DNA of 64,000 nt, taken from positions 62,001-126,000 of the forward strand of contig NZ_RQVJ01000004.1 in NCBI RefSeq assembly GCF_003999875.1, given 5' to 3'. The stretch is from Veillonella sp. 3310. Lineage in GTDB: Bacteria; Bacillota; Negativicutes; Veillonellales; Veillonellaceae. The translations under genes were made by a program, and so were the position numbers. The notes under the pieces were generated by a model. That model was not told the origin of the DNA. It worked only from the letters and a program-made list of their open reading frames with translations, and ran no database searches. How positions within the stretch are numbered: the first letter of the stretch is position 1; each line of letters starts with the position of its first letter. This document shows positions 28,015 to 28,976 of this stretch, one piece after another.

Positions 28015-28043
28015 GGCTTTATACCCCTTTCTCTCATAAAATA

Positions 28044-28052
28044 TGCTATACT
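28044..28052 (+). promoter_or_regulatory. Extended -10 promoter of the small membrane peptide
   Basis: TGCTATACT on the plus strand, about 36 bp before the start codon. The implied leader is about 30 nt, and its CCTCTTT (28061-28067) can pair with the AAAGGAGG (28073-28080) ribosome site of the small ORF. Confidence 0.65.
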
Positions 28053-28087
28053 TTAAGTATCCTCTTTAAACGAAAGGAGGTGAGTTC

Positions 28088-28207
28088 ATGGAGGTTGATT
28101 ACGACGCTCTCGTATGGTGGGTTAACTTTCTTACCCCTATTCTGCAAGGATTGATTGTTAATTTTTTAACATATGCAATTCTGAAGTATTATAAGAATAG
28201 AAAGTAG
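28088..28207 (+). CDS. Small single-pass hydrophobic peptide, type I toxin-like
   Basis: A 39-residue ORF with a near-perfect AAAGGAGGTGA ribosome site. The peptide starts MEVDYDALVWWVNFLTPILQ, has one hydrophobic stretch of about 24 residues and ends in a basic KYYKNRK tail. Its own promoter and a 12-bp-stem terminator make it a free-standing transcript of about 180 nt. The layout (short acidic start, one membrane helix, Lys/Arg tail, ribosome site in a hairpin, convergent antisense promoter) resembles type I toxin genes such as txpA and bsrG. I recognise no exact family, and the toxin role is inference. Confidence 0.65.
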   Translation: MEVDYDALVWWVNFLTPILQGLIVNFLTYAILKYYKNRK

Positions 28208-28210
28208 AAA

Positions 28211-28241
28211 GAAAAAAGGACGGCTGCCACCGTCCTTTTTT
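28211..28241. terminator. Bidirectional terminator of the small-peptide locus
   Basis: AAAAAAGGACGG pairs with CCGTCCTTTTTT around CTGCCA. The U/A runs on both sides make it work for the plus-strand peptide mRNA and for the convergent minus-strand transcript. Confidence 0.9.
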
Positions 28242-28291
28242 GAGTTCATGAATGATTTTCTACAACGCTCTCAGAAAGATTCATTCCTTCT
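28211..28291 (-). ncRNA. Candidate convergent small RNA (possible antitoxin)
   Basis: A minus-strand promoter at 28298-28326 would start an RNA near 28291. The RNA folds a GAATGA...TCATTC hairpin and ends in the shared terminator, about 80 nt long. It overlaps the 3' end of the small-peptide mRNA, as antisense RNAs of bsrG/SR4 and txpA/RatA loci do. Promoter and hairpins are seen; existence of the RNA is inferred. Confidence 0.45.
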
Positions 28292-28297
28292 GCTCCA

Positions 28298-28326
28298 AGT
28301 ATACACCATTCTCTCCTAAAATACAA
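28298..28326 (-). promoter_or_regulatory. Minus-strand promoter facing the small-peptide gene
   Basis: TTGTAT (28321-28326), 17-bp spacer, TATACT (28298-28303). It lies just past the 3' end of the DUF421 gene, and no same-strand gene lies close downstream. Confidence 0.6.
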
Positions 28327-28331
28327 TGGTA

Positions 28332-28976
28332 TTATCCTCTGCGCCCTTCATAAGGATGCAGAATTAGATGACCTTTGGAGTATTCTCCTACATATATATC
28401 ACTAATAGAATATCCTTGGTCTTGTACTTCTTCTTCCAACCAAGCCATGTCTTTGTCCGCAAGCTCTAGTATATCTGGGTCTACCACTCCGTCCACAATC
28501 ACTGGGTAGCGAATGATATCATCACCGTTCATGACTAATGTTAATTGCCCGTTTTGCTCGAGTACAGCACGGCGTACATCGCTCACAAGGGTAACCCCTG
28601 CACTGCGAAGCTTCAACTGCAAATCACTGCCACGAAGACCACGTTTCAAACATTCACCAACACGAATCTTACCCCGGTCAATAACAATGCTAGGACGTCC
28701 ATCGATGAGCGTTTTAATCCATCGCACATGAGCGCTAAGAAAACGCAAGCCCATGACCACGATAGTCCACGCGATAAGGACTAGAAAGAATTGCAAGATA
28801 CCAATACTTTCACTGTAGATAACAGCACCAATAATACCACCTAGTACATAGTTTTGTACCTGATCTAAGGCCGAGTTCGGCGCTAAATTTCCTTTACCCA
28901 TCAAGTTCATTTGCAAAATGAGGGCTAGGATACCAAGGGCTAGCTTAATAAATACTAATGTATATCCTGTTAACAT
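28332..28976 (-). CDS. DUF421 (YetF/YcaP-like) membrane protein
   Basis: 214 residues: three N-terminal membrane helices, then a soluble domain with GRPSIVIDRGKIR and GLRGSDLQLKLRSAGV, the recognisable DUF421 core. It starts four bases after the stop of the DUF3290 gene. DUF3290-DUF421 pairs occur in several Firmicutes, function unknown. Possibly a small envelope-stress or spore-like membrane module. Confidence 0.88.
   Translation of the reverse strand: MLTGYTLVFIKLALGILALILQMNLMGKGNLAPNSALDQVQNYVLGGIIGAVIYSESIGILQFFLVLIAWTIVVMGLRFLSAHVRWIKTLIDGRPSIVIDRGKIRVGECLKRGLRGSDLQLKLRSAGVTLVSDVRRAVLEQNGQLTLVMNGDDIIRYPVIVDGVVDPDILELADKDMAWLEEEVQDQGYSISDIYVGEYSKGHLILHPYEGRRG

What the first reader, a model, noticed from the sequence alone, without database searches (positions are those of the whole stretch)
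28021..28326. Unannotated type I toxin-antitoxin-like locus beside the SRP RNA
A 39-codon ORF has an excellent ribosome site, one hydrophobic helix and a basic KYYKNRK tail. It has its own extended -10 promoter, and its ribosome site can pair with CCTCTTT in its leader. A strong bidirectional terminator follows, and a convergent promoter (TTGTAT, 17 bp, TATACT) would make an RNA of about 80 nt overlapping the mRNA 3' end. This is the layout of bsrG/SR4 and txpA/RatA, but the peptide matches no family I know.
Basis: partly seen in the sequence, partly recalled or inferred. Interest (0 to 1): 0.75.

Follow-up and report, generated by a model that had tools for sequence, protein, structure and literature searches.

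The report
Fst-like type I toxin-antitoxin in Veillonella
A tiny unrecognised gene beside the SRP RNA gene of a Veillonella-type bacterium almost certainly encodes a self-directed membrane toxin that is kept silent by a small antisense RNA matching its start region, in the same arrangement as the enterococcal Fst/par system, and copies of it in related genomes each carry their own private matching RNA.

Summary
The 39-codon ORF (28088-28207), its strong SD, extended -10 promoter, SD-sequestering hairpin, bidirectional terminator and convergent promoter are all present, and they recur in relatives. The toxin peptide occurs in all six genomes held of the genus (16 loci, up to six per genome; named relatives are Veillonella sp. 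CHU740, VA137, VA139, VA142, 3891).

The 5' arm of the antisense RNA repeats the toxin's translation-start region: TGAGTTCATG at 28081-28090 and 28241-28250, TACRACGCTCTC at 28100-28111 and 28261-28272. These direct repeats differ between loci but match within each locus. In 14 of 14 locus types the mRNA start region pairs best with its own antisense arm (window -41.6 kcal/mol; non-cognate mean -12.9; 0 of 20,000 permutations). This is the par/Fst (pAD1 RNA I/RNA II) architecture; txpA/RatA has no complementarity to the translation start.

The peptide has the Fst/Ldr PxxxG motif but lacks the tryptophan and scores below every curated model. Relatives with the same layout (L021, L042, L038) pass the NCBIfam Fst cutoff, and L021 the Pfam Ldr cutoff. 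Verdict: a new, diverged clade of par/Fst-Ldr-like type I TA in Negativicutes. Toxicity and expression are untested.

The parts
28044..28052 (+). extended -10 promoter of toxin mRNA (TGC TATACT); predicted start of transcription about 28059
   Evidence: sequence; TATACT with TG recurs in paralogues
28061..28080 (+). leader hairpin CCTCTTT...AAAGGAGG sequestering the SD (5'-SL equivalent)
   Evidence: fold of each locus leader; SD at least partly paired in nearly all of 26 loci (L013 folds differently), third pair U-A in L001 becomes C-G in L007 and L021
28073..28080 (+). Shine-Dalgarno AAAGGAGG
   Evidence: sequence
28081..28090 (+). direct repeat a, copy 1 (TGAGTTCATG), covers the start codon
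28088..28207 (+). toxin ORF, 39 aa, one transmembrane segment with PxxxG motif (PILQG) and basic tail KYYKNRK
28100..28111 (+). direct repeat b, copy 1 (TACGACGCTCTC), within codons 5-8
28212..28241 (.). shared bidirectional intrinsic terminator
28241..28250 (+). direct repeat a, copy 2 (TGAGTTCATG), in the antisense RNA 5' arm
28261..28272 (+). direct repeat b, copy 2 (TACAACGCTCTC, 11/12)
28212..28291 (-). predicted antisense antitoxin RNA, about 80 nt
   Evidence: promoter and terminator positions, arm conserved; not shown to be expressed
28298..28326 (-). antitoxin promoter TTGTAT-17-TATACT
   Evidence: TTGTAT-17-TATAAT/TATACT in the genus copies

Best explanation
A chromosomal type I toxin-antitoxin module that works like par pAD1 (Fst/RNA II). 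A weak extended -10 promoter makes an mRNA of about 180 nt whose 5' hairpin hides the SD. A convergent, probably stronger promoter makes an antisense RNA of about 80 nt ending at the same bidirectional terminator. The two RNAs share complementary terminator loops and, through two direct repeats, a second complementary region over the start codon and first codons. Pairing there blocks translation. When antisense RNA falls, a 39-aa single-helix membrane peptide of a diverged Fst/Ldr clade is made and inhibits the cell. Shown by sequence: every element and its cognate-specific matching. Inferred: transcription, repression, toxicity, and the cellular role.
For: Homologues in 6 of 6 genus genomes at 16 loci, the module conserved as a unit. 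Cognate pairing is the row minimum in 14 of 14 locus types; window -41.6 vs shuffled -17.1 +/- 3.4 and non-cognate mean -12.9; 0 of 20,000 permutations. Within one genome each of six paralogues pairs best with its own antisense arm, apart from cross-pairing of the near-identical L015 and L016. SD hairpin in nearly all loci. PxxxG and basic tail kept in all genus copies except L014. dN<dS in the membrane part. hhalign with the Fst-type set: prob 92.7, E 4.4e-7; control with another single-helix set: prob 9.5, E 0.0034. The genus profile's top hit outside the genus is L021 (E 7.9e-4), which has the same layout and matches Ldr_toxin at 27.2 bits (cut-off 27) and type_I_tox_Fst at 32.4 (cut-off 26). 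The L038 peptide scores 36.4 bits for Fst, and a close L039-type peptide is 64% identical to annotated Enterococcus Fst. In G005 the toxin has lost SD, start and repeats while the antisense gene is intact.
Against: No transcript or toxicity data. Genus peptides score below all curated cut-offs (PF13940 best E 0.058; NF047374 E 0.066). The Fst/Ldr tryptophan is absent. No consistent U-turn motif in the terminator loop by eye. The antisense -35 is weak against consensus (3/6), and the scan tool flags neither promoter.
Confidence: 0.86

Rival explanations
1. A txpA/RatA or bsrG/SR4-type locus: the antisense RNA acts only through the 3' overlap and RNase III decay or a distant structural change, and the direct repeats are incidental.
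For: Convergent RNAs sharing a terminator; bsrG also has a short SD-sequestering stem (PMC4147584).
Against: Direct repeats over the start codon match only within each locus, in 14 of 14 locus types. txpA has no such complementarity. The peptide motif is PxxxG with a basic tail.
Confidence: 0.05
2. A regulated small membrane protein that is not a toxin (a modulator of a membrane complex), using a par-like antisense switch.
For: Retained beside SRP RNA in the whole genus. The role of chromosomal par loci is unknown (PMC7472228).
Against: Multi-copy spread, copies at a prophage/tRNA-Ser site, a decayed copy that lost the toxin start but kept the antisense gene, and a sequence relation to Fst/Ldr toxins.
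Confidence: 0.07
3. The short ORF is a non-functional or leader-like ORF tied to SRP RNA or dnaX expression.
For: It lies between the divergent SRP RNA and the next gene.
Against: Paralogues occur at several other sites without SRP RNA. Other genera of the family have SRP RNA but no such module there. The ORF is under purifying selection and has its own promoter and terminator.
Confidence: 0.02

Closest known systems
par pAD1 (Fst / RNA I-RNA II) and chromosomal Fst loci (par EF0409, fst-Sm/srSm)
   Same: Convergent promoters, shared bidirectional terminator, two direct repeats overlapping the start codon, SD-sequestering leader hairpin, single-helix PxxxG toxin, locus-specific repeats (PMC7472228, PMC3543317).
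   Different: The toxin has Q in the motif (APUUQGUU, against APUU(A/V)GUU) and no tryptophan, and is 37-39 aa with a basic KNRK tail. Host is Negativicutes. No consistent U-turn motif seen. Toxicity unproven.
Ldr/Rdl (E. coli)
   Same: Toxin resembles Ldr in length and AP-xx-G motif. Pfam Ldr_toxin is the most frequent weak Pfam hit (4 of 9 members, best E 0.058) and L021 reaches its cut-off. Tandem copies.
   Different: Rdl overlaps the 5' UTR of ldr and not the RBS or start (PMC4147584). Here the antisense is convergent and matches the start region.
txpA/RatA and bsrG/SR4 (B. subtilis)
   Same: Convergent overlapping RNAs and a hydrophobic peptide.
   Different: txpA/RatA has no complementarity at the initiation region. 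No match of the peptide to those families in the searches made.
C. difficile type I toxins (NF047374)
   Same: Weak profile match of the window peptide (13.6 bits, cut-off 60).
   Different: Far below cut-off. The second Negativicutes family noticed here is closer to it (23.5 bits).

Membership tests
par/Fst (pAD1 type) type I TA | convergent promoters with shared bidirectional terminator | tested here: met
   conserved across loci
par/Fst (pAD1 type) type I TA | direct repeats giving antisense complementarity over the translation start | tested here: met
   cognate minimum in 14/14 locus types; within single genomes
par/Fst (pAD1 type) type I TA | leader stem-loop sequestering the SD | tested here: met
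par/Fst (pAD1 type) type I TA | upstream helix (5'-UH) sequestering the 5' end of the toxin mRNA | not tested
   only short leader folds and one window mRNA fold were made
Fst/Ldr toxin superfamily | PxxxG motif in the membrane helix | tested here: met
   PILQG in the window; P and G in all genus copies but L014 (AVVLQG)
Fst/Ldr toxin superfamily | tryptophan between helix and charged C-terminus | tested here: not met
   absent from the genus copies; present in relatives L021, L042, L038; also absent from Fst pAD1 itself (PMC7472228)
Fst/Ldr toxin superfamily | match to curated models (PF13955, PF13940, NF033608) | tested here: not met
   for the genus clade; relatives with the same layout pass NF033608 (L021, L042, L038) and L021 passes PF13940
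Fst/Ldr toxin superfamily | profile relation to Fst-type peptides above a control | tested here: met
   prob 92.7, E 4.4e-7; control prob 9.5, E 0.0034
Fst/Ldr toxin superfamily | toxic on over-expression, antisense RNA protects | not testable with these tools
   needs the bench
txpA/RatA type | antisense complementarity confined to the 3' ends | tested here: not met
   start-region complementarity present; definition from PMC4147584
Ldr/Rdl regulation | antisense overlapping the 5' UTR, not the RBS or start | tested here: not met
   antisense arm matches the start codon region; definition from PMC4147584

The most novel reading that the evidence does not exclude
Negativicutes (diderm Firmicutes) hold a clade of Fst/Ldr toxins whose sequence leans towards the Gram-negative Ldr toxins while their control is the Gram-positive par type, so they bridge the two known regulatory styles. 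In this clade the toxin's N-terminal codons serve mainly as a rapidly diverging antisense address that insulates up to six paralogues in one cell, while the membrane segment stays under purifying selection.
Probability: 0.5. Interest if true: 0.6.

Novelty: new member of a known kind. Interest (0 to 1): 0.5.

Why it matters
Type I toxin-antitoxin loci are too short for ordinary annotation. No paper found in the open library describes them in Negativicutes or Veillonella (subscription papers and the early surveys were not held). This locus extends par/Fst control to a genus of diderm Firmicutes, gives natural sets of paralogues for studying how antisense specificity diverges, and supplies intermediates between Fst and Ldr toxins. 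The direct-repeat signature is also a practical way to find such loci when the peptide model fails.

Tried and rejected
Pfam and NCBIfam scans of the single peptide: no usable hit. Plasmid and phage collections with the peptide: nothing real. Viral contigs: no relative. PDB profile search: top hit PepA1, an Fst-family toxin, but E 1.6, so a lead only. Class-wide PF13940 and PF13955 scans: mostly chance hits inside long frames, with real ones picked out by layout. Palindrome GGCGAATATTCGC as a general regulator site: five occurrences in the six genus genomes, all upstream of multi-copy members, so it looks like part of that cassette. SRP linkage as function: rejected, since other copies have no SRP neighbour. 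Structure prediction was skipped as uninformative for one helix.

Full report
What is there. The window lies in a Veillonella-type genome: the relatives fetched by name are Veillonella sp. CHU740, VA137, VA139, VA142 and 3891. Between the SRP RNA gene (RF01854, 27838-27974, minus strand) and a YetF/DUF421 gene (28332-28976, minus) sits a compact module at 28044-28326. It holds an extended -10 promoter, a leader whose CCTCTTT can hide the SD AAAGGAGG, a 39-aa ORF, a 30-bp symmetrical terminator and a convergent promoter that would give an RNA of about 80 nt.

More than chance. A peptide search of the six genomes held for the genus found homologues in all six, 16 places in total, with up to six copies per genome. 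One copy sits beside SRP RNA in every genome. In the other genera of the family, SRP RNA was found in 21 of 22 genomes and I saw no such module beside it. Other copies lie elsewhere: three in a row on one contig near transposase and IS21-type genes (L094), and copies in G005, G004 and G001 upstream of a conserved glycine-transporter-type gene, next to a tRNA-Ser(GGA) or phage remnants, with an integrase in the G005 case. Each intact copy carries the whole module. The membrane part of the peptide evolves with dN below dS in every pair of divergent copies (pooled pN 0.27, pS 0.49), whereas the N-terminus varies freely.

The key feature. Downstream of the terminator, the 5' arm of the antisense RNA repeats the toxin's translation-start region. 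In the window, TGAGTTCATG occurs at 28081-28090 and 28241-28250, and TACRACGCTCTC at 28100-28111 and 28261-28272. These repeats differ between loci but agree within each locus. I computed the duplex between each mRNA start region (beginning after the SD) and each antisense arm (terminator excluded). In 14 of 14 locus types the cognate arm is the best partner. The window pair has -41.6 kcal/mol against a non-cognate mean of -12.9 (best -20.2) and a shuffled mean of -17.1 +/- 3.4. No permutation out of 20,000 reached the observed total. Inside G001, six coexisting paralogues each pair best with their own arm, apart from the near-identical L015 and L016, which can cross-pair. This within-locus agreement with between-locus divergence is what selection for RNA-RNA pairing predicts, and it is the strongest evidence in this report. 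The alignments and energies are computed; pairing in the cell is inferred.

How it most likely works. The layout is that of par pAD1: convergent RNAs, one bidirectional terminator, direct repeats DRa and DRb over the translation start, and a 5' stem-loop that hides the SD (PMC7472228; fst-Sm has repeats over the start codon too, PMC3543317). By analogy the terminator loops make first contact and the repeats then block ribosome binding. Divergent repeats insulate paralogues, as reported for par pAD1 against par EF0409. The antisense promoter looks stronger than the sense promoter, which would fit the chromosomal par loci where antitoxin is in excess. That step is inference.

The toxin. The genus peptides share F-L-x-P-[IV]-[LI]-Q-G and a K-N-R-K tail (L014 departs from both and L005 has KDRK). 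PxxxG is the Fst/Ldr motif and is needed for Fst toxicity. The tryptophan signature is absent, and curated models do not accept the peptide. Intermediates exist. The genus profile's best hit outside the genus, L021 (same order), reads MVLEGFYSVFWSSLLAPVLVGIIIATYTYWLNKK, passes both the Pfam Ldr cut-off (27.2 of 27 bits) and the NCBIfam Fst cut-off (32.4 of 26), and has the same layout with the same kind of cognate repeats. L042 and the L038 group are Fst-type and also show the layout; a peptide of that group is 64% identical to annotated Enterococcus Fst toxins. Profile-profile comparison of the genus set with these gives probability 92.7 and E 4.4e-7, against 9.5 and 0.0034 for a control set of single-helix peptides with a different motif. 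I conclude homology is likely. I file the locus as working like par/Fst and as a probable diverged member of Fst/Ldr, not as a model-defined member.

Support from decay. In G005 the SRP-side copy has lost its SD, start codon and first repeats, yet its antisense promoter, arm and terminator are intact. Losing the toxin first is what an addictive pair allows.

txpA/RatA lacks complementarity at the initiation region (PMC4147584), so it is not the closest precedent. [quoted passage not shown]

Limits. No expression or toxicity data exist here. Taxon sampling is 380 genomes of the class. The literature library holds only openly licensed papers, and the early type I survey I asked for was not available. 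Whether public annotation already names the ORF could not be checked.

Noticed in passing
L101/L049 (G001:C29), L102/L051 (G005:C23), L103, L105 (window's own genome, G000:C2:39023-39106), L112: A second, different family of candidate type I toxins (consensus FxxSVVAGVISxYICKWLDR) with convergent, par-like direct repeats after a terminator; matches in 153 of 380 Negativicutes genomes, NF047374 only 23.5 bits (cut-off 60); repeats beat shuffles.
   Followed up: partly
L108, L109, L110, L065 (L111 weaker): The same second family in other Negativicutes has its matching antisense arm upstream, on an apparently divergent RNA, instead of downstream; repeats beat most or all shuffles in L108, L109, L110 and L065. 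One toxin family with two antisense layouts would be unusual.
   Followed up: partly
L006/L069 (G005:C9, SRP-side copy); L033 (G004:C13): Toxin copy decayed (SD, start and repeats gone) with the antisense gene intact; also a decayed extra copy L033 beside L010 in G004.
   Followed up: partly
L095 (G005:C1), L096 (G004:C13), L097 (G001:C4): Toxin copies sit beside tRNA-Ser(GGA), an integrase or phage structural remnants, suggesting carriage by a prophage or satellite.
   Followed up: partly
upstream of L008, L011, L010, L014, L015: Palindrome GGCGAATATTCGC occurs five times in the six genus genomes, always just upstream of a multi-copy toxin promoter.
   Followed up: partly
L011 about 1850-1935; L092 about 1770-1860: Short holin-like toxin ORF (MTTYEKLSLLIQFSMLIVEVIRCFFS, PF16935 Hol_Tox 26.8 bits, cut-off 23.3) near a toxin copy; a weaker one beside SRP RNA in another genus.
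   Followed up: partly
L038-L041, L043-L047: Fst-type par loci with TTG or ATG starts, in several copies per genome, in another Negativicutes family of the class.
   Followed up: partly
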